Below are positions 8,430 through 28,744 of a stretch of DNA of 53,084 nt, one piece after another. The DNA lies in NCBI GenBank assembly GCA_947589095.1, contig CANQBX010000021.1, forward strand, positions 1 through 53,084, in the 5' to 3' direction. The stretch comes from an uncultured Lachnospiraceae bacterium (GTDB taxonomy: Bacteria; Bacillota; Clostridia; Lachnospirales; Lachnospiraceae). The position numbers and the translations under genes are program-made. Under the pieces are notes generated by a model. It did not search any database. It saw nothing but the letters and a program-made list of their open reading frames with translations, and had not been told where the DNA came from. The stretch's first letter is position 1; every line of letters starts with the position of its first letter.

Positions 8430-8456
8430 CCGCCTCCTTTGAGGCGGCTTTTTTTA
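8430..8456 (+). terminator. Rho-independent terminator of the regulator gene
   Basis: CCGCCTC and GAGGCGG form a 7-bp GC stem with a CTTT loop, followed by CTTTTTTT. This is a textbook terminator 48 bases after the stop codon. Confidence 0.9.
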
Positions 8457-8464
8457 CCTTTAAG

Positions 8465-8478
8465 TGAAATCGATTTCA
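8465..8478. promoter_or_regulatory. LacI/CcpA-type palindromic operator, distal copy
   Basis: TGAAATCGATTTCA is a perfect 14-bp palindrome with the central CG typical of LacI-family sites, and it fits the catabolite-response pattern TGNAANCGNTTNCA. It lies about 150 bases upstream of the locus promoter and about 187 bases (centre to centre) from the second site. It could bind the adjacent LacI regulator, CcpA, or both. Confidence 0.65.
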
Positions 8479-8614: not shown

Positions 8615-8643
8615 TTGACAGTTAATCACATACTGCTTATAAT
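8615..8643 (+). promoter_or_regulatory. Exact-consensus sigma-A promoter of the transport and hydrolase locus
   Basis: TTGACA at 8615-8620 and TATAAT at 8638-8643 with a 17-base spacer match the consensus fully. The upstream 100 bases are AT-rich, as expected for an UP element. A promoter this strong needs repression, which the adjacent palindromes can supply. Confidence 0.9.
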
Positions 8644-8651
8644 CAAGTGCA

Positions 8652-8665
8652 TGAAACGGGTTTCA
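8652..8665. promoter_or_regulatory. LacI-type operator at the transcription start
   Basis: TGAAACGGGTTTCA has perfect TGAAAC/GTTTCA arms around GG. It starts nine bases after the -10 box, so it covers the expected start point, and a bound repressor would block initiation or clearance. Its arms match those of the distal site except for one position per arm. Confidence 0.65.
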
Positions 8666-8694: not shown

Positions 8695-10767
8695 ATGAGA
8701 AGCGGAAAGAGTACATACGGTCTTGCCATACTGACGGCCGCGGCGCTGCTGGCAGGGTGCGCGGCGGGGGGCGGAGGCGCGGGAAATCAGGCCGGCGGCG
8801 GGACGGAAGCGTCCGGCGGAACACAGGCCGGCGAAGAAGCGTCCGGCAGCGGTCAGAACGGCGGCTCGGGACAGGAAGCCGGCGGGGCTTCGGAGCCGGC
8901 GGCAGCGCCTTATCTGTGGGATGTCCATACGACGCAGGAACTGATGGCCGCGGATTATCTGATGTATCGTGTAAACTGCGGCGCCGGTGAGAATACCGGC
9001 GGTGAGACCGGTCTTTACCAGACAGCGGACGATCAGCCCTACGGAGCGGATGCCGGAACCGGAAAGCAGTGGGGATACCGCCCGGCGGATTATATGGAGG
9101 CGGTCGAGGACGATACCGGAGAGGATCTGACGCGCTACCGCTGGGAGATCGCGGAAGGCGCCGAATATGACCCGGAGCAGACCGGTTTCTATTATGATTT
9201 TGAGGTTCCGGGCGGTACCTACGAGGTCACGCTTGGTTTCTATAATCCGTTCAGCGCGCGTACCGTTACGGCGGTGGCGGAAGATCAGACAGTGATGGAG
9301 GATCAGAAGATCCTTAAGTATAAATTGACAGAGAATGCGTTCTATACCACGGTCACCGACGGGAGCCTGCAGCTGAAGGTCTATAACCCGGACCGGGGGA
9401 AGGACGCGATGAAGGATCCGGTCTTAAGCTACATTCTGGTGCGGGCGGTGCCGGAATACACGGCGGAGCTGCTAAAGCAGCTGCTTAAGCAGACGGAGAT
9501 TCCGGAGAATGGGATCCCGGACCGGCAGACGATGCGCTACACGGCGGGAAGCTACGAAGCCTTCGCAAAGCAGTATCAGGCGGCGGAAGCCCTTGCGCAG
9601 AAGGAGGGCGTGCCGGAAGAGGAATACCGCGAACAGTATATGGCGCTTAAGGACGCCTATGACGGATTGGAGGAGATCAAGGTGTATGATTCATTTTTAC
9701 CGGGAAAGAAATGGACGGACGACGAGGGCAATCTGATCCAGGCCCACGGCGGCCAGGTACAGCGGCTGCCGGTGACGGACCCGGCTACCGGACAGACCTC
9801 GGAGAAATGGTGGTGGGTCGGTGAGGATAAGACCAACGGCTCCTCCCGCAGCGGCATCTGCGCCTACAGCTCCGACGACCTTTACAACTGGCATTACGAG
9901 GGGATCGTGATGCGGAACGTGGAGAGCCGGGCCCAGCTGGACGAAGAGGAATATTTCACCAGCCTGTACGCGGACTACACGCCGGAGGAGAAGGACAATG
10001 TATTCACCTGCCTGGATGCGGGGAGTGCGATCATCGAGCGGCCGAAGCTTATTTATAATGAAAAGACAGGCATGTACGTTCTCTGGTTCCACGCGGACGG
10101 GCCGACCGAGACCAGCAATTCCTCTTACGCGGCGGCCTGTGCGGGAGTCGCGGTGTGCGATACGCCCTACGGACCGTTTAAGTTCATCGACCGGTACCGG
10201 CTGAATACCTGTCCGCCGGATCAGGAAGACAAATATCCGGAGAGCAGGGGTATGGCCAGGGATATGAACCTGTTCGTGGATGCGGACGGAACGGCGTATA
10301 TCATTTATTCCAGCGAAGAGAACCTGACCCTTTACATATCGAAGCTGAACGACGAATACACCTATCTGGCGGTTCCGCCGGAGCAGGCGGTTTACGGGAG
10401 GGATTACATCCGGCTGTTCCCGGGAGCCCAGAGAGAGGCGCCGGCCCTGTTCGTGAGGGACGGCGGGTATTACCTGATGACCTCCGGATGCACCGGCTGG
10501 GCGCCGAACCAGGCCAGGTACTACCGGGCGGACTCGGTGCTTGGCGAGTGGGAGAACTGCGGCGACCCCTGCGTGGGGGACGATAACCATACGACCTTTG
10601 AGTCGCAGAGTACCTGCATCTTTAAGGCCGGGGATGCTTACATCTATATGGGCGACCGGTGGAACAGCGAGGATCTGAAAAATTCCCGGTACATCTGGCT
10701 CCCGATCGAGTTCGACGAAGCGGGAGGCATGAGCATCTCCTATACGGATGAGTGGAAGCTTCCGTGA
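8695..10767 (+). CDS. GH43 lipoprotein resembling exo-beta-1,3-galactanase
   Basis: A surface lipoprotein of 690 residues predicted to trim polysaccharide outside the cell. A type II signal peptide ends in LAGC (Cys about residue 20). A Gly/Ala/Glu-rich tether follows (about 21-65), then a beta-sandwich carbohydrate-binding-like region (about 70-250), a helical linker (about 255-335) and a five-bladed GH43 module (about 340-690). GH43 features include QAHGGQVQRL, WWWVGEDK, a GPF repeat, the RDMNLF blade, REAPALF and SGCTGWAPN. These resemble subfamily 24/34 enzymes acting on beta-1,3-galactan or related galactosides. In 1,3-galactanases a Gln serves as base; the Gln of ESQST is a candidate here (inference). 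The ATG at 8695 has AGGAGG seven bases upstream. It is the first gene behind the repressed promoter. Confidence 0.85.
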   Translation: MRSGKSTYGLAILTAAALLAGCAAGGGGAGNQAGGGTEASGGTQAGEEASGSGQNGGSGQEAGGASEPAAAPYLWDVHTTQELMAADYLMYRVNCGAGENTGGETGLYQTADDQPYGADAGTGKQWGYRPADYMEAVEDDTGEDLTRYRWEIAEGAEYDPEQTGFYYDFEVPGGTYEVTLGFYNPFSARTVTAVAEDQTVMEDQKILKYKLTENAFYTTVTDGSLQLKVYNPDRGKDAMKDPVLSYILVRAVPEYTAELLKQLLKQTEIPENGIPDRQTMRYTAGSYEAFAKQYQAAEALAQKEGVPEEEYREQYMALKDAYDGLEEIKVYDSFLPGKKWTDDEGNLIQAHGGQVQRLPVTDPATGQTSEKWWWVGEDKTNGSSRSGICAYSSDDLYNWHYEGIVMRNVESRAQLDEEEYFTSLYADYTPEEKDNVFTCLDAGSAIIERPKLIYNEKTGMYVLWFHADGPTETSNSSYAAACAGVAVCDTPYGPFKFIDRYRLNTCPPDQEDKYPESRGMARDMNLFVDADGTAYIIYSSEENLTLYISKLNDEYTYLAVPPEQAVYGRDYIRLFPGAQREAPALFVRDGGYYLMTSGCTGWAPNQARYYRADSVLGEWENCGDPCVGDDNHTTFESQSTCIFKAGDAYIYMGDRWNSEDLKNSRYIWLPIEFDEAGGMSISYTDEWKLP

Positions 10768-11011
10768 GCGGAGAGATGCGGGGCGGCATAAGAGCATCGG
10801 CGGCGCGGCCGGCATAAGAAGGGATCGGCGGCCCGCGGGGCGGATGAAGAAGACAACCAGCAGACCGGTGTGACTGACACCGCGGGGCGGCTGACGAAGC
10901 AGAACAGCGGGCCGCCGCGAAGCAGCAGATGCGAAAGAACGGCAGCAGGCCCGGCGCGGCCGAAAGCGCGGACCGGGCATACGGCGAATAAAGGAAAGGC
11001 GTGGACTCGAT

Positions 11012-13912
11012 ATGAGAAACGATGAGAGAGTGAGAGGGAAGAAAGCAGCGGCGATCCTGACTGCGGCTGTGCTGTCCGTGGGCGTCGGTACTCTGGCTCC
11101 TGCCATGACGGCGGGCGCGGCCGGAATGGAGTCTGAGGATGTGGTCGACGGACTTCTGGATGTGATCCACGATACCGAGACTTACGAGGACTATCTGGCG
11201 GCCCATGACGGGGCGGCGTATCCGGACGCGGAGATCACGGTAAACGGATCGGATTATAAGGAAGCCTCCGAAGGCTTCACGGCCGACGCGGACGGTCTGA
11301 ATACGTTGGAGGACGGAAGCGTCACCTATGAGGTGGATGTGCCGGAAGCCGGCTTCTATAACATTTTCCTGAACTATTATCCTACCGAGGGCAAGAATAA
11401 CGCCATCGAGCGCGAGCTTTACATCAACGGGGAGATCCCCTTCGAGAACGCCCAGTATCTGGAGTTTACCCGGATCTGGGAGGACGCGGAGGAGATCCGC
11501 CGGGATTCCCGCGACAACGACGTGCGGCCCAAGCAGAAGGAGGCCGGACAGTGGATGTCCGCTTACCTGGCCGACAGCGACGGCTATTATCAGGATTCGT
11601 TCAAATTCTATTTCGACAAGGGCGTCAGCACGATCACCCTGGTGTCCACCAAGGAACCGATGAAGATCGGAAGCATCGTCTTAAAGCAGGAGGAACCGCT
11701 GCCGGCTTACGCCGAGTATCTGGCGCAGCACAGCGATGCGGCTCAGGTGCGGATGGACGAAGCGATCAAGATCCAGGGCGAGAATGTGCTGTACAAGTCT
11801 GATTCTACGCTGTATCCCATCGCGGATCGTACCTCTCCCTTATCGGAGCCCTACAGTCCCAGCAAGACCCGCCTGAACGTAGTCGGCGGCGCCAACTGGA
11901 AGCAGGTGGGGCAGTGGCTGACCTGGGAGATCGAAGCCCCTTACGACGGCATGTATGAGATCGCCCTGCGCTATCGCCAGAACATCAATACCGGCGTCAC
12001 CGTGGTGCGTTCGGTCCTGCTGGACGGCGAGCTTCCCTTTGAGGAGGCCAGGGAGTGCAAGTTCTATTATAACAATGACTGGCAGATCGTTCCTCTGGGG
12101 ATCGAGGACGGGGAACCGTTCCGGTTCTATCTGACGGCCGGTACCCACACGCTGCAGATGAAGGTCAGCCTGGGTGAGGAAATGTCGGAGATCATCCGCA
12201 GGACGGATGTGTGTATCTCGGAACTGAACCGGGCCTACCGGCAGCTTCTGATGGTGATCGGCAGTTCGCCGGACACCATGCGCGACTACCAGCTGACCAC
12301 CAGGACGCCGGAAGCGCTTCAGATCCTGAAGGAACAGTATGAGAATATCAGTGAGATCCGCCGGATGGTGGACGACTATATGAAGGGAACGGCCAGCAGC
12401 TCCACCGCCACGGTGGATAATCTGGTCAACCAGCTGCAGAGGATGACGGAGGATCCCAGAACCATTGCAAGACAGTGGTCCGCCTTCAAGGACAATATCG
12501 TATCCCTGGGCTCCTGGCAGCTGTCCATGAAGGAACAGCCCCTGGAGATCGATTATCTCCTGCTGGGGCAGCCGGGCATGAAGCTTCCGAAGGCGGAAGC
12601 CGGCTTCCTTCAGAAAGCGGTCCATGAGATCAAGCAGTTCGCGGCCAGCTTCGTGGAAGACTACGACAGCATCGGCGAGGTCTACGAGGGCGAGGCCCTT
12701 CAGGTCTGGATCCTGGCCGACGGCAGCAACGTCACCAGCATGACCGGCGGCGGCCGCGATCAGGCCACGGTCATCAAGGATCTGGTGGACAACTACTTCG
12801 TGCCGGAGGAGAATATTCCGGTTAACGTCAAGCTGGTCAATAAGGACGTGCTTCTGTCGGCGACCCTGGCCGGCGAGGGCCCGGATGTGGCCCTGAACGT
12901 GGCCGGTGTGGAGCCTGTCAATTACGCCCTCCGCAACGCGGTCGTCGATCTGACCCGGTTTGAGGATTTCGACGAGGTGCGGGGATGGTTCCACGACGAG
13001 GCCCTGACCCAGTTTACCTTTAACGGCGGCGTCTACGCGCTGCCCCAGACCATGTCCTTCCACGTGATGTTCTACCGGGCGGATATCTTAAAGGATCTCG
13101 GTATCGAAATCCCCAGAACCTGGGATGATTTCTACGAGGCCCTGGCGGTGATCCAGAAGAACAACATGAATATCGGGATCACCCCGGACTACACGACGTT
13201 TGCGATGTTCCTCTACCAGCACGGAGGACAGTATTACTCCGATGATTCCAGGCAGAGCGGGCTGGAGACGGAGGAGGCCATCGACGCCTTCAAACAGTGG
13301 TCCGGCAATTACGTCAATTACCGGATGCCGGTCACCTTCGATTTCGCCAACCGGTTCCGAACCGGAGAGATGCCGCTGTCCATCGGAGACTACACGCAGT
13401 ACAACTACCTGTCCGTGTTCGCACCCGAGATCCGCGGCCTGTGGGGCTTCACCGTCGTGCCGGGCTACGAGCGGGAGGACGGTACCCTGGACCACAGCGT
13501 GTCCACCTGGGAGACCGGAGCCATCATCATGGAGACCAGCGACCAGAAAGAGGAAGCCTGGAAATTCCTTAAGTGGTGGATGAGCGCGGATACCCAGTCC
13601 AGCTACGGCAATGAGATCGAGAACGTCTTAGGCGTCTCCGGACGTGTGGCTACCGCCAATATGGAGGCCCTGGCGAATCTCCCCTGGTCCAACCGGGATT
13701 ACCGGCAGCTGACCGCGGAGCTTCAGTGGGTGAAGTCGATCCCGCAGGTTCCGGGCGGCTACTACACCGAGCGCAATATCAAGAACGCGTTCTATACGGT
13801 ATACAACAACAACGAGGATCCCAGAGAGACCCTGCAGGATACCGTGAAGACCATCAACACAGAGATCGACGCCAAGCGGAAGGAATTCGGCCTGCCGCTG
13901 GCCGGCGAATAG
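11012..13912 (+). CDS. Giant ABC solute-binding protein with fused carbohydrate-binding domains
   Basis: A 966-residue secreted binding protein. The signal peptide (about 1-37, Ala-rich end GAAG) lacks a lipobox Cys, so unlike most Gram-positive binding proteins it is not predicted to be lipid-anchored. Two beta-sandwich domains with related YEVDVPEAGFYNIFLNY and WEIEAPYDGMYEIALRY cores (about residues 110 and 310) look like carbohydrate-binding modules. A helical stretch (about 405-540) follows, then an SBP_bac_1-type module (about 560-950) with the DVALNVAG and FNGGVYALPQT segments typical of sugar-binding proteins. It precedes two permease genes by 21 bases and is surely their partner. The 244-base gap before it is GC-rich, has imperfect direct repeats of GGCATAAGA-GATCGGCGG type, and no gene. 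AAAGGAAAGG precedes the ATG by about 12 bases. Usual length for the family is about 420-550. Confidence 0.88.
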   Translation: MRNDERVRGKKAAAILTAAVLSVGVGTLAPAMTAGAAGMESEDVVDGLLDVIHDTETYEDYLAAHDGAAYPDAEITVNGSDYKEASEGFTADADGLNTLEDGSVTYEVDVPEAGFYNIFLNYYPTEGKNNAIERELYINGEIPFENAQYLEFTRIWEDAEEIRRDSRDNDVRPKQKEAGQWMSAYLADSDGYYQDSFKFYFDKGVSTITLVSTKEPMKIGSIVLKQEEPLPAYAEYLAQHSDAAQVRMDEAIKIQGENVLYKSDSTLYPIADRTSPLSEPYSPSKTRLNVVGGANWKQVGQWLTWEIEAPYDGMYEIALRYRQNINTGVTVVRSVLLDGELPFEEARECKFYYNNDWQIVPLGIEDGEPFRFYLTAGTHTLQMKVSLGEEMSEIIRRTDVCISELNRAYRQLLMVIGSSPDTMRDYQLTTRTPEALQILKEQYENISEIRRMVDDYMKGTASSSTATVDNLVNQLQRMTEDPRTIARQWSAFKDNIVSLGSWQLSMKEQPLEIDYLLLGQPGMKLPKAEAGFLQKAVHEIKQFAASFVEDYDSIGEVYEGEALQVWILADGSNVTSMTGGGRDQATVIKDLVDNYFVPEENIPVNVKLVNKDVLLSATLAGEGPDVALNVAGVEPVNYALRNAVVDLTRFEDFDEVRGWFHDEALTQFTFNGGVYALPQTMSFHVMFYRADILKDLGIEIPRTWDDFYEALAVIQKNNMNIGITPDYTTFAMFLYQHGGQYYSDDSRQSGLETEEAIDAFKQWSGNYVNYRMPVTFDFANRFRTGEMPLSIGDYTQYNYLSVFAPEIRGLWGFTVVPGYEREDGTLDHSVSTWETGAIIMETSDQKEEAWKFLKWWMSADTQSSYGNEIENVLGVSGRVATANMEALANLPWSNRDYRQLTAELQWVKSIPQVPGGYYTERNIKNAFYTVYNNNEDPRETLQDTVKTINTEIDAKRKEFGLPLAGE

Positions 13913-13933
13913 GAGAGAGGAGGCAGAACCGCT

Positions 13934-14884
13934 ATGAAAGAGAATGAAAAGCTGTTTCCCATGCTGCGGGACTACGGAAAGATCAAGGCGAAGCTTCTGT
14001 GGAAGAACATTAAGAAGAACAAGACCTCGTATCTGTTCATCGCCCCCTACTGCATCCTGTTTCTGATGTTTTACCTGGTGCCGGTGCTGGTGTCCATGGG
14101 ACTGAGCTTCACCTATTTCAACGTCCTGGAACCGCCCCGGTTCGTGGGCTGGAAGAACTACATCGACCTGTTCTTCGCCGATGAGATCTTCTTAAAGGCC
14201 GTGAAGAACACCTTCCTCTTCGCGGTGATCACGGGCCCCATCGGATATTTCCTGGCCCTGTTCATCGCCTGGATGATCAATGACATCAAGAATTCCAAGA
14301 TCCGCGCGTTCATGACCCTGATCTTCTACGCGCCCACGATTTCGGGCCAGGCGTACGTCGTCTGGAAATACATTTTCTCCAGCGATACCTACGGTCTGGC
14401 TAACGGCTGGCTGATGAAGCTGGGCGCCATCTTCGGGCCGATCCTGTGGTTCGAGGATGAGAAATACATCATGCCGATCCTGATCGTCGTGGTCCTGTGG
14501 ATGAGCATGGGCACCGGCTTCCTTTCCTTCATCGCCGGCCTGCAGAATGTGGACCGTTCCCTCTACGAGGCGGGCTATATGGACGGGATCAAGAACCGGT
14601 TCCAGGAGCTGTGGTACATCACGCTGCCGTCTATGAAGGAGCAGCTGATGTTCGGCGCGGTTATGACGATCACCAGTTCCTTCGCAATCCATGATCAGCT
14701 GGCGGCCCTGGCCGGTTTCCCCAGCGTCAACTACTCGGCCCACACGGTGGTGTCCCATCTGATCGACTACGGTACGATCCGTTTCGAGATGGGTTACGCC
14801 TCCGCCATCGCCACGCTTCTGTTCATGGTTATGATCCTCTGCAACAAGCTGGTTCAGCTCATCTTGGGAAGGATTGGTAAATGA
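13934..14884 (+). CDS. ABC sugar transporter permease (MalF/UgpA type)
   Basis: A 316-residue inner-membrane permease with six hydrophobic segments; the first starts near residue 34 (YLFIAPYCILFLMFYLVPV). The cytoplasmic EAA loop, which docks the ATPase, is LYEAGYMDGIKNRFQELWYI. It should pair with the next permease and with the giant binding protein just upstream to import an oligosaccharide. No ATPase gene occurs in this locus, so a shared MsmX-type ATPase encoded elsewhere is the likely motor. AGGAGG lies nine bases before the ATG. The stop overlaps the next start (ATGA), which indicates translational coupling. Confidence 0.93.
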   Translation: MKENEKLFPMLRDYGKIKAKLLWKNIKKNKTSYLFIAPYCILFLMFYLVPVLVSMGLSFTYFNVLEPPRFVGWKNYIDLFFADEIFLKAVKNTFLFAVITGPIGYFLALFIAWMINDIKNSKIRAFMTLIFYAPTISGQAYVVWKYIFSSDTYGLANGWLMKLGAIFGPILWFEDEKYIMPILIVVVLWMSMGTGFLSFIAGLQNVDRSLYEAGYMDGIKNRFQELWYITLPSMKEQLMFGAVMTITSSFAIHDQLAALAGFPSVNYSAHTVVSHLIDYGTIRFEMGYASAIATLLFMVMILCNKLVQLILGRIGK

Positions 14885-15750
14885 CGATGAAGATTTTTCA
14901 TAAGAAGAGAGCAAAACAGAGCCATTCCAGAGCCGGCGATTTCTTAAGCCTGCTGATCCTGATTACGATGGGGTGTTTCATGGCGCTGCCGTTAATACTG
15001 GCCATCAGCAACTCCTTAAAACCGCTGGAAGAGCTGTTCATATTCCCGCCCAGATTTCTGGTCCGGAATCCTACGCTTAACAATTTCCACGACGTGTTCG
15101 TGCTGATGAGCCAGTCGTGGGTGCCGTTTACAAGGTACATATTCAATACGGTGTTCATCACCGTGGTCGGAACCTTCGGCCACCTGATCATCGCCAGCCT
15201 CTGCGCCTACGCACTGGCTAAGCACAACTTCCCGGGACAGAAGGCCATCTTCTGGGTGATCGTGACAGCCCTTATGTTCTCCACCCAGGTAACGGCGATC
15301 CCCAACTACCTGATCATGTCGGGGATCGGCTGGCTGGACACCTACCTGTCCCTGATCATTCCGGCCATCGCCAAGCCCCTGGGGCTGTTCCTGATGAAAC
15401 AGTTCATGGAGCAGATTCCCACCACGCTTCTGGAGGCGGCCCGGATCGACGGAGCCAGCGAGTGGAAGATCTTCTGGGGGATCGCGATGCCCCAGGTGAA
15501 GCCGGCCTGGCTGACGCTGATCATCTTCTGCTTCCAGGATCTGTGGAACCTGCAGGGCTCCAACTACATTTACAGCGAGCAGCTTAAGACCCTGCCGTAT
15601 GCGTTAAGCCAGATCTCCGCGGCCGGTATCGCGCGAAGCGGCGCGACGGCGGCGGTGGCGGTCATCATGATGGTGGTTCCGATCACGATCTTCATGATCA
15701 GCCAGAGCAACATCATCGAGACCATGGCTTCTTCCGGCATCAAAGAGTAA
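14881..15750 (+). CDS. ABC sugar transporter permease (MalG/UgpE type)
   Basis: A 289-residue permease with six membrane segments. It is the second half of the heterodimeric channel begun by the previous gene, whose last codon it overlaps by four bases. The EAA loop reads LLEAARIDGASEWKIFWGIA, a nearly canonical form. A typical CUT1 carbohydrate importer has one permease of each type, and this pair fits that pattern. An alternative in-frame ATG lies two codons downstream. The gene is followed after 12 bases by the NHL-repeat gene. Confidence 0.93.
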   Translation: MTMKIFHKKRAKQSHSRAGDFLSLLILITMGCFMALPLILAISNSLKPLEELFIFPPRFLVRNPTLNNFHDVFVLMSQSWVPFTRYIFNTVFITVVGTFGHLIIASLCAYALAKHNFPGQKAIFWVIVTALMFSTQVTAIPNYLIMSGIGWLDTYLSLIIPAIAKPLGLFLMKQFMEQIPTTLLEAARIDGASEWKIFWGIAMPQVKPAWLTLIIFCFQDLWNLQGSNYIYSEQLKTLPYALSQISAAGIARSGATAAVAVIMMVVPITIFMISQSNIIETMASSGIKE

Positions 15751-15762
15751 GGAGGGCGGACA

Positions 15763-17235
15763 ATGAAGAAAACGATCAAAACCATTGCGGTGTTTGCTTC
15801 GGCTCTCTGCCTTCTGGCCTCCCAGCCGATGGCGGCGCGGGCGGATATGCCGTATGAGACCTACAACTTCAACTTCTGGGGAGAAGAGGTGCTGCAGCCC
15901 CACTCCTACCTGTATTCTGGTTCCATTTCCACGGCGCAGATCGGTTCGGCGCTTCGGTATCCGCAGGATATGTGCATCTTTGAGGATCATATCTATGTGG
16001 CGGATACCGGGAATTCCCGGATTCTGATCCTGAACCTGGACGGCAGCACGGCGCAGGAGGTGACGGCGGCGGACGGGGCGGAGGATCTGCTCAACCAGCC
16101 CCAGGGCGTGTTCGTTACCGACGCGGGTCATCTGTATGTGGCCGACAGCGGCAACAGCCGGATCGTGGAATACGACGAGAACCTGAATTTCGTCCGCCAG
16201 ATCGGCCGGCCGGTGACCAACCTGATCAGCGATTCCCAGGCGTATACGCCGATCCGTCTGGTGGTGGATCATTCCGACCGGATCTACGTGATCGCCTACG
16301 GTATTAACATGGGTCTGGTGGAATTCGACAAGGACGGCGTGTTCCAGGGCTTCATGGGAGCCACGGAGGTCAGCGTCAGCACCTTCGAATACATCTGGAA
16401 GAATTATTTCTCCACCGAAGCCCAGCAGGCCAGGATGGAGACGATTATCCCTACCGAATACAGCGATATCTTCGTGGATGACGAGAATTTCATCTACGCG
16501 ACCATCAGCAACCTGTCGGAAGAGGATCATATGCAGGGAGCCGACATGGTCCGGCGGCTGAATCCGACGGGCACCGACGTGCTTAGGCGGCTCGGCAACA
16601 ACGATATCACCGGAGACTTAAACGGCCGTTCCTTCTCGACTTTTGTGGATGTGGCGGCGACCGATTACGGATGCTATTTCATCCTGGACAGCGCCGGCGG
16701 CAAGATCTTCGCCTACGATTACGACGGCAACTCCCTCTTCGCCTTCGGAAAGAAGGGCATCAAGGAGGGCAACGTCCAGCAGCCGGTGGCCCTGGCGCTG
16801 GGAGAAGGGCAGGATAAGATCTATGTGCTGGACAATACGCTGGGCAGTATCCTGATCTTCGAGATCACCGATTACGGACGCCACCTTCTGGACGCTTTAC
16901 GGCTTAACGACATCGGCGACGCGGAAGGCTCCAACCGGGAGTGGCAGGCGGTGATCCAGAGCAACTCCAACAACGAGATGGCCTACATCGGCCTGGGCAA
17001 GACGTATCTGGCCGAAGGGCAGTACAAGCAGGCCATGGAATATTTCCGGCTGGGCAACAGCCGCAAGTACTATACCAAGGCGTTCTTCTATTACAGGAAG
17101 GAACTGATGGAGAACAACTTCGGCAGGGCCATGCTGGTGCTGGGACTCGGCATTGTGATCGCGCTAATCGTTTACTATGTGTTCAGATTCAGAAGATGGG
17201 TAGGTGAAGTGAGATGCTTTATGTCGAAACGATAA
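15763..17235 (+). CDS. Secreted NHL beta-propeller protein with TPR-like region and C-terminal membrane anchor
   Basis: A 490-residue extracytoplasmic protein of unknown function. It has a signal peptide (about 1-28, ending ARA-D), an NHL beta-propeller from about 60 to 375 (repeats with IYVADTGNSRILIL and LYVADSGNSRIVEY), a TPR-like helical pair (about 400-440, GLGKTYLAEGQYKQAMEYF), one membrane helix (about 455-476) and a short basic cytoplasmic tail. Propellers of this type bind proteins or glycans rather than catalyse. The RBS is AAGGAGG, and the end overlaps the Yip1-like gene by 22 bases. Its place between two permease pairs, always in the same direction, suggests it is a structural or docking subunit of the importer or its regulator. 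That role is inference. Confidence 0.82.
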   Translation: MKKTIKTIAVFASALCLLASQPMAARADMPYETYNFNFWGEEVLQPHSYLYSGSISTAQIGSALRYPQDMCIFEDHIYVADTGNSRILILNLDGSTAQEVTAADGAEDLLNQPQGVFVTDAGHLYVADSGNSRIVEYDENLNFVRQIGRPVTNLISDSQAYTPIRLVVDHSDRIYVIAYGINMGLVEFDKDGVFQGFMGATEVSVSTFEYIWKNYFSTEAQQARMETIIPTEYSDIFVDDENFIYATISNLSEEDHMQGADMVRRLNPTGTDVLRRLGNNDITGDLNGRSFSTFVDVAATDYGCYFILDSAGGKIFAYDYDGNSLFAFGKKGIKEGNVQQPVALALGEGQDKIYVLDNTLGSILIFEITDYGRHLLDALRLNDIGDAEGSNREWQAVIQSNSNNEMAYIGLGKTYLAEGQYKQAMEYFRLGNSRKYYTKAFFYYRKELMENNFGRAMLVLGLGIVIALIVYYVFRFRRWVGEVRCFMSKR

Positions 17236-17834
17236 AATACGGATTCTATGTGATCACCCATCCCCTGGACGGTTTCTGGGGCATCCGCAGGGAGAATAAG
17301 GGGAGCCTGGCGGCGGCGTTTACATTTGTGGCCCTGACGATCCTGACGCTGACGATCGAGAAGCAGAACACCGGTTTCCTGTTCAATATGAACCGGCTGT
17401 CGGAGCTGAACGTGCTGGTGGACATTTTCACGGTGCTTCTGGTCTATGTGCTCTGGTGCGTGGCCAACTGGTGCACCACCTCCCTGATGGAAGGCAAGGG
17501 GCGGATGAAGGACATTCTGATCGCCATCGGATACGCCCTTCTCCCGATCATCCTGATCCGGCTTCCTATGGTGATCATGAGCCATATGATCACGGCGGAT
17601 GAAGGAACCTTCTACTATGTGCTGGGAACCATCAGCTACCTGTGGACGGGGCTTCTGATCTTCACGGGGACCATGACGATTCATCAGTATTCGATCACCA
17701 AGACCATCGTGACCATCGCGATCACCATCGTGGCTATGGGGATACTGATGTTCATCGGCCTGCTGTTCTTCAACGTGATCCAGCAGATGCTGACGTTTGT
17801 GATGACGATTTACCGGGAACTTCGGTTCCGGTAG
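17214..17834 (+). CDS. Yip1-domain-like multi-span membrane protein
   Basis: A 206-residue integral membrane protein with about five hydrophobic segments (about 35-50, 70-90, 100-125, 140-160 and 165-200) and little soluble sequence. The opening YGFYVITHPLDGFWGIRRE followed by the helix bundle resembles the bacterial Yip1/YIF1 superfamily. Its function in bacteria is not established. It starts inside the end of the NHL gene, so translation is probably coupled. It lies 13 bases before the DUF5696 gene. Presumably it forms a membrane subunit with those neighbours. Confidence 0.78.
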   Translation: MLYVETIKYGFYVITHPLDGFWGIRRENKGSLAAAFTFVALTILTLTIEKQNTGFLFNMNRLSELNVLVDIFTVLLVYVLWCVANWCTTSLMEGKGRMKDILIAIGYALLPIILIRLPMVIMSHMITADEGTFYYVLGTISYLWTGLLIFTGTMTIHQYSITKTIVTIAITIVAMGILMFIGLLFFNVIQQMLTFVMTIYRELRFR

Positions 17835-17847
17835 AAAGGGGGCAGAC

Positions 17848-20379
17848 ATGAAGAAGATAAGAAGGACCGGGCTGCTTTGCATGGCCGCCGTACTGCTTCT
17901 CGGCGCTGCGCCCCTGAACGCTTACGCGGCGGACGCGCCGAAGGGCATGGATAAGGTGGCGGAGAATGAATATCTGACCCTTTATCTGAACGATAAGGAC
18001 ACCAGCTTGGCGGTGGTGGACAACGCGACCGGCAAGGTCTGGTACACCAATCCCCAGGACGAGGATACATTTGCTTCCGCTTACTACCAGAGGCTTCTGA
18101 AGAGCCAGCTGCAGATCCTGTACTACAATGAGAATGTGCAGTCCAGCACCATGGACAACTACAACGACAGTATCCAGGACGAACAGTTTACCATCGAAGA
18201 GGCTGAAAACGGCGTGACCATTACCTACACCATCGGCGCCGCGGTGGGAACCATGCTTCTTCCGGACGCGATCTCGGAGGAGCGGTACCAGAACTATTTC
18301 AATCAGATGGGATCCAGCGAACAGAAGAAGGTCAACCGCAATTACGTGTATGTGGATCTGACCAATCCGACGGGCAGCGACGAGATCGCCACCTATCTGG
18401 AGACATATCCCGGCTTTACGACCAACTTCTACGTTCTCCGCGGCGGCGTCCGCGACTACCTGAAGGAGGACCTGGAGGAATACTTCGTGGAGGCCGGCTA
18501 CACGGCCGAGGATCTGGAAGCGGATATGCTGGAAAGCGGGATTGGCGAATCGGAGAATTCCGATCCCTGGTTCATCATTCCGATGACGTATGAGCTGGAC
18601 GGAAGGAACCTGGTGGTGACCGTCGATCCGGCTAAGGTAGAATATAACGAAGCGTTCTATCCGGTGCGGATCGACGTGCTTCCCTACTTCGGGGCGACGG
18701 CCGCGGACGACGGATACCTGTTCGTTCCGGACGGAAGCGGAGCGCTGATCTACACAAACAACGGAAAGACGTCGGTCTCTTCCTACTCGGCCCTGGTCTA
18801 CGGCCAGGACGAGACGAAGCAGGTACTGACGCAGACCAAATCGGAGATCGATCCCAGTCTGACGATCAAGATGCCGGTCTTCGGCGTGAAGTCAGAGGAA
18901 CAGGCGCTGTTCGCCATTATCGAGGACGGCGCGGCGTACGCCAATGTGGCCGCGGATATCTCCGGAAGGACCACATCCTACAACCAGGTGAACGCGGGCT
19001 TCCAGTTCCTCCAGTACGGCCAGGCGTCCTTAAGCGAAATGGTGGGCTCCAACGGCTATCAGCTGTACTCCAGCCCCAAGTTCGCGGGAACCTACCGGCT
19101 GCGCTACTCCTTCCTGACAGGGGAGAAGGCGGACTACTCCGGCATGGCGGACTGCTACCGGCAGTATCTGGAAGGAAACGGCGTGCTGACGAAGAGCGAT
19201 GAGACGGAGGTCCCGTTCTTTGCCGAATACATCGGCGCGATCAATAAGTACAAGACGATCCTGGGCGTGAAATACGACGCGGTAGAGCCGCTGACCACCT
19301 TCGCCCAGGGCGAGGAGATCACGAACCGGCTGAAAGGTCTGGGCATCGACAACCAGAAGGTCGTTTTTGACGGCTGGGCCAACGGCGGCATGCACGGAAC
19401 GGCGGGCCTGAAGCAGAAGGCCGTGTCTTCCCTGAAGAAGGGCGGCGTTTCGGCGGAGCAGTTCCAGACGGATATGGCTTCTCTGGGCGTGGATACCTAC
19501 ATGACCGTGGAAATGCAGTATGTCTACAAGGATAAGATGCTGGACGGCTATTCCACGCTGCAGTACGCGCCGAGTTATTTCGACCATTCGAATATCGAGG
19601 TGAACAGCTACTTCTTCGCGGACAACAGTCTGGATCAGAAGCTGGCGGATCTGATCAGCCCCTACTATGCGGGAAAGACCGCCGACAGCATCTTAAGCGG
19701 CGTCGGCAAATACGGCATCCGCAGGCTGAACCTGGGAAGCGTCAGCAATTACCTCTACTCCGATTTCCTGGAGAGCCGCTATACGGACCGGCAGATGGCG
19801 GTGGGGCTCTACCAGCAGAGCTTTGACAAGATGGCCGGTCAGATGGATTCCATGCTGGGAGACAACGGCAACGATTACGTCTGGAAATACACCGACTATA
19901 TGATCAATGTGCCGCAAAGCTCCAACGGCTACCAGATCCTGGACGAGGATGTGCCGTTCTATGAAATGGTCCTTCACGGATCGATCCCCTACGCGGGAGA
20001 GGCCATCAACCTGGCCGACGATTACCGGACCACGCTGCTGAAGAGCGTGGAATCCGGCGCGGGACTCCATTTCCAGTGGATCTACGGTGATAATTCCCTG
20101 GTAAATGAGACGGACTTCGACTACCTGTACTCGGTGCATTACGGCAACTGGATCGACCAGGCCGCCGCCGATTACAAGCGGGTGGAGGAAGCCCTGGCGG
20201 GGCTGGGAGATCAGAAGATCACGGCGCACAGCCGGGACGGCAATGTGACGAAGACAACCTATGAGAACGGAACAACTGTGTATGTGAATTACAGCAAGGA
20301 TAAGGTTACGGTTGACGGAACCGAGATCGGCGCAAGAGATTTCGCGGTGGTGAAAGCCTCCGCCGGGGAAGGGGAGTGA
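17848..20379 (+). CDS. Secreted DUF5696 protein
   Basis: An 843-residue exported protein with a signal peptide (about 1-28, ending AYA-AD) and no lipobox. The N-terminal half is beta-rich (TLYLNDKDTSLAVVDNATG near residue 45). The middle and C-terminal parts resemble a glycosidase-like barrel with segments such as KVVFDGWANGGMHG (about 508-521) and YMTVEMQYVY. I assign it to DUF5696 from its layout and its regular company with Yip1-like and sugar ABC genes in Firmicutes. Whether it cleaves glycans is unknown. The start at 17848 follows AAAGGGGG. It is separated from the next permease gene by four bases, so it belongs to the same transcript. Confidence 0.8.
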   Translation: MKKIRRTGLLCMAAVLLLGAAPLNAYAADAPKGMDKVAENEYLTLYLNDKDTSLAVVDNATGKVWYTNPQDEDTFASAYYQRLLKSQLQILYYNENVQSSTMDNYNDSIQDEQFTIEEAENGVTITYTIGAAVGTMLLPDAISEERYQNYFNQMGSSEQKKVNRNYVYVDLTNPTGSDEIATYLETYPGFTTNFYVLRGGVRDYLKEDLEEYFVEAGYTAEDLEADMLESGIGESENSDPWFIIPMTYELDGRNLVVTVDPAKVEYNEAFYPVRIDVLPYFGATAADDGYLFVPDGSGALIYTNNGKTSVSSYSALVYGQDETKQVLTQTKSEIDPSLTIKMPVFGVKSEEQALFAIIEDGAAYANVAADISGRTTSYNQVNAGFQFLQYGQASLSEMVGSNGYQLYSSPKFAGTYRLRYSFLTGEKADYSGMADCYRQYLEGNGVLTKSDETEVPFFAEYIGAINKYKTILGVKYDAVEPLTTFAQGEEITNRLKGLGIDNQKVVFDGWANGGMHGTAGLKQKAVSSLKKGGVSAEQFQTDMASLGVDTYMTVEMQYVYKDKMLDGYSTLQYAPSYFDHSNIEVNSYFFADNSLDQKLADLISPYYAGKTADSILSGVGKYGIRRLNLGSVSNYLYSDFLESRYTDRQMAVGLYQQSFDKMAGQMDSMLGDNGNDYVWKYTDYMINVPQSSNGYQILDEDVPFYEMVLHGSIPYAGEAINLADDYRTTLLKSVESGAGLHFQWIYGDNSLVNETDFDYLYSVHYGNWIDQAAADYKRVEEALAGLGDQKITAHSRDGNVTKTTYENGTTVYVNYSKDKVTVDGTEIGARDFAVVKASAGEGE

Positions 20380-20383
20380 GGAG

Positions 20384-21319
20384 ATGAATTATTTCAAGAA
20401 GCGAAACGGCAAATTGAGACTGTCCCTGACCGGCAAAGAAGCGATCGCGGGCGTGCTGTTCATCCTGCCGTTCCTGATCGGATTCTTCGGAATCTTCCTC
20501 CCGCTGATCGTGGAGTCCATCCACTTCAGCTTTACCAACATGGAAGTATCCTCCACCGGCTATGTGTTAAAGCCGGCGGCCAATAACGGCCTGGAGCATT
20601 ACCTGCGGGCTCTGACCATCGATCCGGACTTTAACCTGCAGCTTCTGACCAGCATCGGCCAGATGGCGGCGAAGGTACCGCTGGTGATCATTTTCAGCTT
20701 CTTCGCGGCCACGCTGATCAACCAGAAGTTCCACGGCAGGGCCATCGCCAGGAGCGTGTTCTTCTTCCCGGTGATCCTGACCAGCGGCGTGATCATGGGC
20801 CTGGAGAATTCCGACCTGCTGCTGCAGACCTTAAGCACCACCGGCGAGAGCGCGGACGATATGGCGTCGTTTCTCAATATGGCCCGGTTCCTCAGCGAGT
20901 ACACGAACCTGCCGGCCAGCGTGATCGGCTTTCTGTCCGACGCGGTCAACGGCATCTACGATATCGTGGTGGCCAGCGGCGTGCAGATCCTGATCTTCCT
21001 GGCGGGACTCCAATCCATCAGCCCGTCCCTCTACGAGGCGTCCAGCATCGAGGGCGCGACGGCCTGGGAGAATTTCTGGAAGATCACGTTTCCCATGATC
21101 AGCTCCATGATCCTGGTGAACAGCGTATATACGATCATCGATCAGTTTACCAATGAGACCAACGAGATGATGACCACCATCCGGGATACGATCTTCGTGG
21201 ATATCAAGTACGGATACGGTTCGGCGATGGCGTGGATCTACTTCATCTGCATCGCCGTGATCCTGATCATCGTGGGCGGACTGATTTCAAGGAAGGTGTT
21301 CTATTATGATGAAAGATAA
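20384..21319 (+). CDS. ABC sugar transporter permease of the second importer
   Basis: A 311-residue permease with six membrane segments. The ATPase-docking EAA loop is LYEASSIEGATAWENFWKIT. It is the first member of a second permease pair in the same locus and shows only family-level similarity to the first pair. The start is preceded by GGGGAGTGAGGAG. Its end overlaps the next permease gene by 14 bases. The likely partner binding protein is the lipoprotein gene at 22445. Confidence 0.93.
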   Translation: MNYFKKRNGKLRLSLTGKEAIAGVLFILPFLIGFFGIFLPLIVESIHFSFTNMEVSSTGYVLKPAANNGLEHYLRALTIDPDFNLQLLTSIGQMAAKVPLVIIFSFFAATLINQKFHGRAIARSVFFFPVILTSGVIMGLENSDLLLQTLSTTGESADDMASFLNMARFLSEYTNLPASVIGFLSDAVNGIYDIVVASGVQILIFLAGLQSISPSLYEASSIEGATAWENFWKITFPMISSMILVNSVYTIIDQFTNETNEMMTTIRDTIFVDIKYGYGSAMAWIYFICIAVILIIVGGLISRKVFYYDER

Positions 21320-22313
21320 AGAGAAGAAGACGAAGGCATCCGGAAAGAATACCGATTTTGTGAAGAACAAAAAGAAGATCACGCCCGCCCGCGTCGGCAG
21401 GTTTCTGATCTCCATTGTCCGCGGCGTGATCATCGTCGGGATCTGCTTCGTGATCCTGCAGCCGCTGTTCGCAAAGCTGTGCGTGTCCTTCATGGCGGAG
21501 CGGGACCTGTATGATTCCAGCGTCAAGTATATCGCCAAGCATTTCACGCTGGACAATTACAAGATGGCGATCGAGGGCATGGATTACTGGACGGTGCTGA
21601 TACGGACCACGGTGCTGTCGGTGGGGATCTCGCTTCTGCAGCTGTGCTCCTGCCTGCTGACGGCCTACGGCTTCGCCCGGTTCCGTTTCCCGTTCAAGAA
21701 GCTCCTGTTCGGATGCGTGATCCTGTCGCTGATCGTGCCGCCCCAGGTCATCATGCTGCCGCTGTTTATGAAGTACCGGTTCTTCGATATTTTCGGGATC
21801 TTCCAGGCGACGACGGGAGCCAGCGTGAACCTGATCGACACCTACTGGCCGTTCGTCCTTCAGTCGGCCACCTGCATGGGCATCCGCAACGGCCTGTATA
21901 TCTACATGCTGCGGCAGTTCTTCAAGGGCATGCCCAGGGAGCTGGAGGAAGCGGCGTTCGTGGACGGCAGCGGAAAGCTGCGCACCTTCGTGCAGGTCAT
22001 GCTGCCCAGCGCCGTGCCGATGATGGTCACCGTGTTCCTGTTCGGCTTCGTATGGCAGTGGACGGATACCTTCTACACATCCCTGTATTTAAACAGTACG
22101 AAGGTGATGTCCTCCTCCTTAAGCAATCTGGCGGTCGGCGTTTACTCGCTCTATGAGAATAACGGCGGCTCCATGAACTTCGTAAGCCCCGGCTTTGTTT
22201 CCCTGATGAACAACACGGGCACCATGCTGGCGATCGTACCGCTGATCCTTCTGTATCTGGTCTGCCAGAAGTATTTCGTGGAGGGCATTGAGAGATCCGG
22301 TATCGTCGGATAG
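21306..22313 (+). CDS. ABC sugar transporter permease, partner of the second pair
   Basis: A 335-residue permease with a basic, Lys-rich cytoplasmic N-terminus (about 1-30) and six membrane segments. The EAA loop is ELEEAAFVDGSGKLRTFVQV. Two ATGs (21306 and 21309) are possible starts. With the preceding gene it forms a complete CUT1 channel. Again no ATPase gene is present. A 131-base gap with two GC-rich hairpins separates it from the binding-protein gene. Confidence 0.93.
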   Translation: MMKDKEKKTKASGKNTDFVKNKKKITPARVGRFLISIVRGVIIVGICFVILQPLFAKLCVSFMAERDLYDSSVKYIAKHFTLDNYKMAIEGMDYWTVLIRTTVLSVGISLLQLCSCLLTAYGFARFRFPFKKLLFGCVILSLIVPPQVIMLPLFMKYRFFDIFGIFQATTGASVNLIDTYWPFVLQSATCMGIRNGLYIYMLRQFFKGMPRELEEAAFVDGSGKLRTFVQVMLPSAVPMMVTVFLFGFVWQWTDTFYTSLYLNSTKVMSSSLSNLAVGVYSLYENNGGSMNFVSPGFVSLMNNTGTMLAIVPLILLYLVCQKYFVEGIERSGIVG

Positions 22314-22320
22314 CAGAGAA

Positions 22321-22367
22321 CGGCGCGGCAAACCTGCGGCGCCGGAAAATCCCGCTCGGGCGCGGGA
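22321..22367 (+). promoter_or_regulatory. Two intercistronic hairpins before the second binding-protein gene
   Basis: Two short GC stems follow each other: CGGCGC/GCGCCG (22321-22326 with 22339-22344) and TCCCGC/GCGGGA (22350-22355 with 22362-22367). No U-run follows. Such hairpins between importer genes often stabilise the downstream binding-protein mRNA or attenuate the upstream part. Confidence 0.4.
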
Positions 22368-22444
22368 ATGGATACCAGATGAATGTTAGGCCCTGCGTGT
22401 CAGGACTTTAGCAGAATATATTCCAAGAAAGAGAGGAAAAAACT

Positions 22445-23980
22445 ATGAAAAAAAGCATCGCAATCAAAAAGGCTGCAGCGCTTCTGATGTCCGCGGCCAT
22501 GGTGCTGTCCCTGGCTGCCTGCGGAAGCAGCAACGGCGGGAGTGCAGAGACGACTGCCGCAGCCACTGAGGCGGCCACCACAGCGGCGGCCGAGACAACA
22601 GCGGCCGAGACGGCGGCTGCCGAGACGGAAGCCCCCACTGAGGCGGAGCCGGAATATGATTTCGGCGGAAGAGTTTTAAGGATCGGTTCCTACTACGACA
22701 TGGCGCCCGATCCCAGCGCCAACGCCATCGAGGCGGCTCTGGCCGAGAGGATCAAGTTCGTTGAGGACAATTACAACTGCAAGATCGAGTTCGTGAACCT
22801 GGAAGGCGATTACATGAACGACTATGTGACCAGCGTTCTGGCCGGCGACCCGGTCGTGGATATCGGCTACGCCGTGACCAACCGCGTGCTTCCGTCCCTG
22901 ATCGAGGGCGGCATCGCATACCCGGTCAGCGACCTGGGCGTATTCGATTTTGACGCGTACAAGTGGCGTCAGGACGTCAGCAAGGCCGGCACCTACAAGG
23001 GCAAGACCTATACCTGGTGCTTAAAGGATCCGGAGATCCGCTACGGCATCTTCTGGAACAAGACCCTGTTCGAGCAGTACGGTCTGCCGGATCTGTACGA
23101 ACTGATGGACAGCGGCGAGTGGACCTGGGAGAAGTTCAAAGAGATCGCCATCGCCGGCAACCAGGATCTGGATAACGACGGTACCTATGATATCGTGGGC
23201 TTCAACGCCAGAGAGAATCTGCCCTGGTGCTTCATGTCCTCCAACGGCGTTACGGTCTGCGAGCAGACGGACTCCGGCGTCGAGATCGACCTGAGCGATC
23301 CCGCCGTTGTGGAAGCGCTGACCGCGCTGCAGGATTTCGCGACCACCGTCGATTATGACGACGACATCGACTGGTCCACCGAGAGCTGGGACGACATGAT
23401 CCATTATTTCCGCGACGGCAAGGCCATGATGTGCCTGGAGGAGTTCTGGATCTCCTACAGCTATCTGAACAACGCCGACACGCCGATGCAGGATGACTGG
23501 GGCTGGGTGCCGTTCCCGAAGGGACCGTCCGCGACCGACTGGTCCTGCTACGGCAAGGAGAACGGATGCCGCATCATGCTGAACGGCATCGACAAGCCGG
23601 AAGAGGCTGCCCTGATCTATGACCTGATCACGGATCTGGCCGACACCGACGAAGAGTGGGACGACCTGATGGAAGATAAGCTGGAGAGCTGGTGCGACGA
23701 CGGCGAGACCGTTGAGAACGTATCCTATATCTACAACAACGGCATCACCAACATCAACACCATCAACGGCTTCTCTGACCTGAACGACGCTGTGAACAGC
23801 ATGTTCAACGACATCGCTGCCGGAACCACCACCCCGCAGACTGCCATCGAGACCTATCAGTCTCAGATCGACGCGGCTATCGCGGATCTTGCGAACCACG
23901 ATTACGACGCGGAGATGCAGGAGATGGTCATCACCGAGGAGGAAGAGTCGGAAGGCGAATCCGCTGCAGAGGGAGAATAA
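22445..23980 (+). CDS. ABC solute-binding lipoprotein of the second importer
   Basis: A 511-residue lipid-anchored binding protein. The type II signal peptide ends in SLAAC (Cys at about 27). An unusually long Ala/Thr/Glu-rich spacer (about 33-72, repeated AETTAAE-type units) lifts the binding domain off the membrane. The rest is a family 1 sugar-binding fold, with TYTWCLKDPEIRYGIFWNKT as the family's ligand-cleft region. The C-terminus is strongly acidic (EEEESEGESAAEGE). It lies downstream of the second permease pair and should serve it. GAGAGGAAAA precedes the ATG. It is the last gene before a strong terminator. Confidence 0.92.
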   Translation: MKKSIAIKKAAALLMSAAMVLSLAACGSSNGGSAETTAAATEAATTAAAETTAAETAAAETEAPTEAEPEYDFGGRVLRIGSYYDMAPDPSANAIEAALAERIKFVEDNYNCKIEFVNLEGDYMNDYVTSVLAGDPVVDIGYAVTNRVLPSLIEGGIAYPVSDLGVFDFDAYKWRQDVSKAGTYKGKTYTWCLKDPEIRYGIFWNKTLFEQYGLPDLYELMDSGEWTWEKFKEIAIAGNQDLDNDGTYDIVGFNARENLPWCFMSSNGVTVCEQTDSGVEIDLSDPAVVEALTALQDFATTVDYDDDIDWSTESWDDMIHYFRDGKAMMCLEEFWISYSYLNNADTPMQDDWGWVPFPKGPSATDWSCYGKENGCRIMLNGIDKPEEAALIYDLITDLADTDEEWDDLMEDKLESWCDDGETVENVSYIYNNGITNINTINGFSDLNDAVNSMFNDIAAGTTTPQTAIETYQSQIDAAIADLANHDYDAEMQEMVITEEEESEGESAAEGE

Positions 23981-24034
23981 TTCCGGACGCGCGGGAATGA
24001 AGAAGGCTTCAATCGTTGTGTGAGTTGAGATTCG

Positions 24035-24070
24035 AAGGGGGCCTCAGTTGTGCGCTGGGGCTCCCTTTTT
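24035..24070 (+). terminator. Strong terminator closing the transport locus
   Basis: A 13-bp stem (24035-24047 with 24055-24067; two G-U pairs) has a 7-base loop and ends in a run of five T. It marks the end of the 15-kb locus and separates it from the GH35 gene. Confidence 0.9.
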
Positions 24071-24200
24071 ACAAAAGACAGGATCTGGTCCGCGGCAGCG
24101 GCAGCCGGGACGGCGCCCGGACAGTCTTCGGGCGGCCGGACAGACAGCGGCGCGGGACAGAGAAAATGAAATGGCAGTTCAGAAGGAGAGGAAAACAGGA

Positions 24201-26076: not shown

Positions 26077-26140
26077 AGCTTAAGATAAGGAATCATGAGC
26101 CAGAAGATCATTGCGAGAATTAAGGAGCTTGGGGACTCTG

Positions 26141-28726: not shown

Positions 28727-28744
28727 TCGAAGGAGGAGAGAGGC

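What the first reader, a model, noticed from the sequence alone, without database searches (positions are those of the whole stretch)
8695..23980. Two ATPase-less sugar importers linked to a secreted and membrane module (NHL-TPR, Yip1-like, DUF5696)
Nine or more genes run in one direction with overlaps or tiny gaps: GH43 lipoprotein, giant binding protein, two permeases, NHL/TPR single-pass protein, Yip1-like protein, DUF5696 protein, two permeases, binding lipoprotein. The three middle proteins have no known function. Their tight coupling (22-base overlap, 13- and 4-base gaps) between two complete permease pairs suggests one envelope machine, perhaps a docking scaffold that feeds long oligosaccharides to two channels. 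That role is inference; the gene order is seen.
Basis: partly seen in the sequence, partly recalled or inferred. Interest (0 to 1): 0.7.

Follow-up and report, generated by a model that had tools for sequence, protein, structure and literature searches.

The report
Conserved dual sugar-importer cassette with trio
The window holds one copy of a widespread, unusually rigid gene cassette in which two sugar importers are nearly always found with three uncharacterised envelope proteins, which points to an undescribed accessory machine for catching and importing plant-type glycans.

Summary
The gene order is real and recurs as a block. In three partly overlapping fetched sets NHL and Yip1 precede DUF5696 in 24/24, 76/76 and 36/36 loci with room; permeases P1b-P2b follow in 26/27, 73/73 and 37/40. 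The giant binding protein with P1a-P2a is directly upstream in 21/21, 69/71 and 21/32; elsewhere it is rearranged, downstream, or (4 loci) not in the fetched DNA. Members include Lachnospiraceae, Paenibacillus and Treponema. Eight proteins co-diverge across 115 loci (r 0.86-0.94). NHL and Yip1 are often fused.

DUF5696 is modelled as a GH129/GH101-like fold, but no barrel acid is invariant in 64 relatives, so a glycan-binding role is favoured (inference).

A consensus promoter, two LacI-type operators and a strong terminator frame GH43 to the last binding protein as a likely single operon. It has no ATPase gene; an orphan UgpC-type ATPase lies elsewhere.

Best reading: a glycan importer with a propeller/Yip1/DUF5696 capture assembly on the P1b-P2b permease, here perhaps for galactan-type oligosaccharides. 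Complex, capture and hand-off are inferred. No paper in the held library names DUF5696.

The parts
7351..8382 (+). LacI-family regulator, likely controls the operon
   Evidence: Pfam LacI and Peripla_BP_3; followed by terminator-like hairpin 8430-8447
8465..8478 (.). LacI-type operator 1, TGAAATCGATTTCA
   Evidence: one of two TGAAANNNNTTTCA matches in 53 kb; 0.01 expected
8615..8643 (+). promoter TTGACA-17-TATAAT, 12 of 12 consensus bases
   Evidence: consensus match, not a mapped start; the scan as a whole is near chance (12 sites, 9.5 expected), but this is its only 12 of 12 site
8652..8665 (.). LacI-type operator 2, TGAAACGGGTTTCA, just after the -10 box
   Evidence: the same 14 bases lie in sister locus L070 at 793-806; no such match in L072
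8695..10767 (+). GH43-domain lipoprotein
   Evidence: PF04616 E 3e-15; lipobox LLAGC seen in the sequence
11012..13912 (+). SBPa: giant binding protein, N-terminal part with two CBM6/35-like stretches and a helical stretch, C-terminal CUT1 binding protein
   Evidence: PF01547 at 601-862; profile A8 of residues 1-560 matches CBM35/CBM6-bearing chains at two places, weakly (best such E 8.5e-8); phmmer of the C-terminal part
13934..14884 (+). P1a permease with EAA-G loop
   Evidence: PF00528; EAA loop
14881..15750 (+). P2a permease with EAA-G loop
   Evidence: PF00528; EAA loop
15763..17235 (+). NHL propeller, TPR helices, one membrane helix near the C-terminus
   Evidence: PF01436; hydrophobic segment 456-474; AF2 model of the fused homologue from L112
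17214..17834 (+). Yip1-domain membrane protein; fused to the NHL protein in many relatives
   Evidence: PF04893 E 5e-16; fusions
17848..20379 (+). DUF5696 protein, N-terminal hydrophobic signal-like segment, GH129/GH101-like fold
   Evidence: PF18952 E 5e-179; AF2 pLDDT 89.4; Foldseek to 5opq E 2.5e-31, TM 0.55/0.68
20384..21319 (+). P1b permease with EAA-G loop
   Evidence: PF00528 below its cut-off, partial UgpA/MalF matches; EAA loop; conserved place
21306..22313 (+). P2b permease with EAA-G loop
   Evidence: PF00528; EAA loop
22445..23980 (+). SBPb: ordinary CUT1 binding lipoprotein
   Evidence: PF01547 E 1e-14
24034..24068 (+). intrinsic terminator closing the operon
   Evidence: -26 kcal/mol, z -4.4, followed by a U run; not listed by the consensus scan
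24171..25940 (+). GH35 beta-galactosidase downstream of the terminator (start chosen by eye)
   Evidence: PF01301 E 5e-115

Best explanation
The region is one LacI-controlled operon carrying a conserved glycan-import cassette. SBPa-P1a-P2a is a CUT1 importer with a giant carbohydrate-binding receptor, and NHL-Yip1-DUF5696-P1b-P2b(-SBPb) is a second CUT1 importer with three dedicated envelope subunits. The propeller/TPR protein and Yip1 form one membrane unit (seen as a fusion in many relatives) with the propeller outside. DUF5696, a glycosidase-like protein most likely without normal catalysis, binds glycan chains above the permease and passes ends or released oligosaccharides to SBPb and P1b-P2b. 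ATP hydrolysis is supplied in trans by a shared UgpC/MsmX-type ATPase. In this copy the cargo is perhaps galactan or arabinogalactan oligosaccharides. Shown: gene content, block inheritance, fusion, predicted folds, promoter/operator/terminator sequences, lack of an ATPase gene in the operon. Inferred: transcript, physical complex, glycan binding by DUF5696, hand-off, ATPase pairing, topology, cargo.
For: Trio 24/24, 76/76, 36/36 and P1b-P2b 26/27, 73/73, 37/40 of loci with room (sets partly overlap). In 53 DUF5696-positive genomes, 126 of 133 matches to the cassette's Yip1 profile have DUF5696 within 3 kb downstream, and 129 of 138 DUF5696 matches over the cut-off (gene fragments counted apart) have Yip1 upstream (from; 10 sub-cut-off rows dropped). 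All 53 carry the giant SBPa N-terminus. In 398 phylum genomes strong hits to DUF5696, SBPa and the NHL protein fall in nearly the same genomes. Eight proteins co-diverge over 115 loci, r 0.86-0.94. NHL and Yip1 fused in 15 of 26, 17 of 80 and 23 of 41 loci that show a Yip1. Folds. Carbohydrate-module-like stretches in SBPa. Neighbours: GH26 14, GH43 12, GH53 5, GH38 3, GH35 2, LacI 15 of 92 proteins scanned; GH53 beside L072 and L090. ATPases.
Against: No expression, binding or complex data exist here. Of 124 loci with room for it, module A is not in the fetched DNA of 4 (L147, L164, L165, L173) and lies downstream in 7 (in L162 only the permease pair, behind ordinary binding proteins); L193 and L175 are rearranged. 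So one joint two-channel machine is not general. In G117, G183, G209, G096 and G136 DUF5696 matches outnumber SBPa matches. Short DUF5696-like proteins without the trio exist (G030:C8, which has a permease pair behind it, and G051:C156). About half of the relatives keep Asp at the inferred beta4 position (33 of 64), and this copy alone of 64 has Asp508 at the GW motif that the profile alignment lines up with an Asp of NagBb, so catalysis is not excluded. A Paenibacillus cellulosilyticus plasmid copy lies beside LLM flavin oxidoreductases and a UgpC gene, so not all cargo need be plant glycan. Co-divergence is expected for genes that travel together and does not prove contact.
Confidence: 0.55

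Rival explanations
1. DUF5696 is an active exo-glycosidase that trims oligosaccharides at the membrane, and the cassette is an ordinary glycan-utilisation operon with one unusual enzyme and a sensor-like propeller.
For: GH129/GH101-like fold, E 2.5e-31 to ZgGH129 and 3e-23 to NagBb; Asp at the inferred beta4 position in 33 of 64 relatives; D639 in 56/64, D699 in 59/64, E735 in 98 percent; Asp508 in this copy.
Against: No barrel acid is invariant in 64; this copy has Ser631; the protein family is kept beside very different glycosidases (GH26, GH43, GH53, GH38), odd for a substrate-specific enzyme.
Confidence: 0.2
2. Two independent importers are merely co-regulated and inherited together; the trio is an assembly, microdomain or stress factor for membrane proteins and never touches glycan.
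For: Module A can be elsewhere or absent; the Yip1 family is broad (over its cut-off in 7 of 14 control genomes).
Against: Cassette-type Yip1 is almost always next to DUF5696 (126 of 133); all eight proteins co-diverge; DUF5696 has a glycosidase-like fold.
Confidence: 0.2
3. The system exports or remodels the cell's own surface polysaccharide rather than importing food.
For: Occurrence in bacteria of very different taxa; no substrate tested.
Against: Binding proteins and CUT1 permeases with EAA loops are importer parts; scanned neighbours include plant-glycan hydrolases and LacI regulators.
Confidence: 0.03

Closest known systems
CUT1 (type I) carbohydrate ABC importers with a shared ATPase, such as those served by MsmX in Bacillus subtilis
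   Same: SBP_bac_1 binding proteins, two permeases with EAA loops, no ATPase gene in the operon, orphan UgpC-type ATPase elsewhere
   Different: two permease pairs and a giant receptor in one inherited block, plus three envelope proteins that such importers do not have as far as I recall (MsmX papers seen only as a search listing)
GH129 and GH101 glycosidases (ZgGH129/ZGAL_3152, NagBb, SpGH101)
   Same: beta-sandwich, barrel and C-terminal beta domain; Foldseek probability 1.0; architecture of ZGAL_3152 read in passages of PMC5698469
   Different: no invariant acid in the barrel; Ser at the inferred nucleophile place in this copy; tied to transporters
Yip1-domain proteins
   Same: PF04893
   Different: in the cassette fused to, or just behind and often overlapping, an NHL/TPR propeller gene
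Gram-positive glycan-utilisation loci (LacI regulator, glycosidases, CUT1 importer)
   Same: all three parts present
   Different: trio and second permease pair

Membership tests
CUT1 ABC importer | permeases with EAA-G loop | tested here: met
   all four window permeases
CUT1 ABC importer | carbohydrate-type binding protein | tested here: met
   PF01547 in SBPa and SBPb
CUT1 ABC importer | MalK/UgpC-type ATPase | tested here: inconclusive
   none in the operon; three in the genome, one orphan; pairing not tested
DUF5696 (PF18952) | profile match over cut-off | tested here: met
   597 bits against 25.6
GH129 | fold | tested here: met
   Foldseek ranks 1-11 are ZgGH129 and NagBb, E 2.5e-31 to 8e-22; TM by target 0.66-0.70, rmsd 6.6-8.3
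GH129 | Pfam Glyco_hydro_129 match | tested here: not met
   only PF18952 at E 0.01 or better
GH129 | conserved catalytic Asp (NagBb Asp435 = ZGAL_3152 Asp486, PMC5698469 passages) | tested here: inconclusive
   position inferred from strand order only; Asp in 33 of 64, Ser here
Yip1 | PF04893 match over cut-off | tested here: met
   59.6 bits against 28.6
NHL propeller | NHL repeats and propeller fold | tested here: met
   repeats in the window protein; fold modelled on the fused homologue of L112, not on the window protein: 6xg7 E 5e-18

The most novel reading that the evidence does not exclude
A previously undescribed class of ABC importer in which an external propeller-Yip1 base and a pseudo-glycosidase capture long glycan chains and thread or hand them to two permease pores driven by one shared ATPase: a Gram-positive counterpart in function of SusCD glycan capture.
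Probability: 0.25. Interest if true: 0.85.

Novelty: new variant of a known kind. Interest (0 to 1): 0.62.

Why it matters
Three protein families or family branches without known function become testable as one system. In a sample of 398 phylum genomes about one in ten carries full-length DUF5696 (41 genomes with strong hits, window genome included, counted by eye; 51 have any match at E 0.001), and four genomes have ten or more matches, some partial. How Bacillota catch and import long plant glycans without SusCD is, to my knowledge, open; this cassette names candidate parts and gives hosts (Paenibacillus) in which to test them.

Tried and rejected
Export of surface polysaccharide: rejected as main reading because of importer parts and hydrolase neighbours. 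GH129 membership: fold agrees, but the Pfam GH129 profile did not match and no barrel acid is invariant. A search for true GH129 genes in 149 phylum genomes, meant for aligning active sites, found nothing, also nothing in its controls, so it shows no absence. Exact residue mapping to NagBb Asp435 was not possible: Foldseek gives no residue alignment and the HMM alignments stop before that part. Solved structures for the cassette Yip1: none matched at E 1. Literature, in the held library only: DUF5696 0 papers; four further searches for the combination or for GH129-like pseudoenzymes gave nothing on this system by title and abstract start; three on GH129 itself, of which passages of PMC8106489 and PMC5698469 were seen. 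A regular expression for EAA loops over all loci was too strict (P1a 15 of 142, P2a 130 of 134, P1b 99 of 148, P2b 134 of 153) and is not used; only the window's four loops are claimed. Neighbour survey: 192 nearest ORFs were picked, 107 fitted the size limit, I left out 15 of these by hand (mostly short) and scanned 92, so the counts are not a census. The NHL profile also gives weak hits in many genomes without the cassette (143 of 398 at E 0.001, cassette genomes included), as expected of a common repeat; only matches over 200 bits are used. Partial SBPa-N matches (best 122 to 164 bits) occur in four genomes of one family without strong DUF5696 (G066, G109, G146, G175).
Full report
Observation. 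The start of the GH43 lipoprotein is the ATG at 8695 behind AGGAGG. A perfect consensus promoter (TTGACA, 17, TATAAT) lies at 8615-8643; the scan as a whole found 12 promoter-like sites against 9.5 expected, and this is its only 12 of 12 match. The palindrome TGAAANNNNTTTCA occurs twice in 53 kb, at 8465 and 8652, against 0.01 expected, on both sides of that promoter and just after the LacI-family gene at 7351-8382. Sister locus L070 keeps one of them, L072 none. A hairpin at 24034-24068 with a U run folds at -26 kcal/mol, z -4.4. So GH43 to SBPb looks like one LacI-controlled operon, with GH35 beyond its terminator. The terminator scan (11 sites, 12.3 expected) missed that hairpin and lists weak + strand sites inside SBPa and P2b, so it is a soft witness. 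These are sequence signals, not mapped transcripts.

Recurrence. The same genome has five DUF5696 genes and five Yip1 matches, in the same five places. The other four copies show the same eight-gene order, two with NHL and Yip1 fused. In the 60-genome family sample the 27 matches over 300 bits, the window genome's five included, were looked at (window): 26 of 27 have P1b-P2b directly downstream, and in L062 the pair lies upstream. Of the shorter DUF5696-like proteins fetched (L065-L069), none has the trio; L065 has a permease pair behind it.

Counts in larger sets (loci with room on the needed side). Window plus L039-L064: trio 24 of 24, P1b-P2b 26 of 27. Named best 80: 76 of 76 and 73 of 73. 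Phylum set L155-L194 (41 DUF5696): 36 of 36 and 37 of 40. Exceptions to P1b-P2b: L062, L159, L160, L193. Complete module A (SBPa-P1a-P2a) directly upstream: 21 of 21, 69 of 71, 21 of 32. The other 13: complete and downstream in L146, L178, L179, L186, L189 and L194; only P1a-P2a downstream in L162; P1a-P2a upstream with SBPa behind P1b in L193; upstream with P2a in two pieces in L175; not in the fetched DNA in L147, L164, L165 and L173. Two plasmid copies have the full order. In 53 positive genomes 126 of 133 Yip1 and 129 of 138 DUF5696 matches are paired; of the unpaired, 5 of 9 DUF5696 start within 511 bases of a contig start and 3 of 7 Yip1 lie within 1.3 kb of one on the side where DUF5696 would follow. 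All 53 genomes have the SBPa N-terminus. Among 398 phylum genomes strong SBPa matches without DUF5696 appear in two, G157 and G199, each within 2 kb of the contig start on the downstream side; a 202-bit partial NHL match without DUF5696 appears in G282. These scans of 398 scored only two to four candidates per genome, so absence there is soft.

Block inheritance. Across 115 loci with all eight genes, pairwise distance matrices correlate at 0.86-0.94. This is expected for genes that travel together and does not by itself prove contact. The within-genome copies are 20-31 percent identical in DUF5696, so they are old whole-cassette paralogues.

Anatomy. DUF5696 was modelled with 64 sequences at mean pLDDT 89.4. 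The best solved folds are ZgGH129 and NagBb, then GH101, GH36 and GH31; superposition is loose (TM by target up to 0.70, rmsd 6.6 or more). Sequence profiles agree weakly (8rzk E 1.7e-5, 5wzq E 1e-4). PMC5698469 (passages read) describes the same three-domain plan in ZGAL_3152 and names Asp486 as the counterpart of NagBb Asp435. By strand order I place that residue at 631 here: Asp in 33 of 64, Thr 18, Ser 6 including this copy. No barrel acid is invariant; E735 reaches 98 percent. Against this, this copy alone of 64 has Asp508 at the GW motif, which the profile alignment lines up with an Asp of NagBb. I therefore favour a binding role, at 0.55 for the whole reading, and keep catalysis as a rival. 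The fused NHL-Yip1 protein of Paenibacillus terrigena (L112) was modelled at pLDDT 85.7: propeller 30-366, helical repeats 368-428, long helix 432-476, Yip1 485-686, the propeller matching NHL domains. The N-terminal 560 residues of SBPa match CBM35/CBM6-bearing chains at two places and are conserved among 33 aligned copies.

Energy and cargo. The genome has three matches to the MalK-type ATPase domain. One, at C1, sits beside ftsE/ftsX-like and other genes (named by eye) and scores over the UgpC cut-off, so it is a fair candidate for a shared ATPase; the other two lie beside sugar-transporter genes (by eye). Neighbours in 92 scanned proteins: GH26 14, GH43 12, GH53 5, GH38 3, GH35 2, LacI 15. 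The relatives L072 and L090 have GH53 galactanases; with GH43 and GH35 here this suggests type I galactan (inference). Own-genome copies differ in neighbours: three GH43 at L041; fucosidase, GH3 and GH2 at L042; no hydrolase family among the two ORFs scanned at each of L039 and L040.

Verdict.

Noticed in passing
127-2751: GH3 protein with reversed domain order: GH3 C-terminal domain and Fn3 first, GH3 N-terminal domain last.
   Followed up: no
26111-30016: Hybrid histidine kinase/response regulator directly followed by another CUT1-type binding protein; no permease Pfam among the neighbours scanned there.
   Followed up: no
L070:19370-21598: A 743-residue ORF with a LacI helix-turn-helix at the N-terminus and a CUT1 binding-protein domain at the C-terminus.
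   Followed up: no
L154 (Paenibacillus cellulosilyticus plasmid): Cassette copy flanked by a UgpC ATPase gene and several LLM-class flavin oxidoreductases, hinting at a cargo other than plain sugar.
   Followed up: no
genomes G096, G117, G136, G183, G209: 8 to 21 DUF5696 matches (some partial) per genome of 2.2-3.0 Mb, outnumbering the giant SBPa.
   Followed up: partly
4092-7106, minus strand: 1004-residue ORF without any Pfam match at E 0.01.
   Followed up: no
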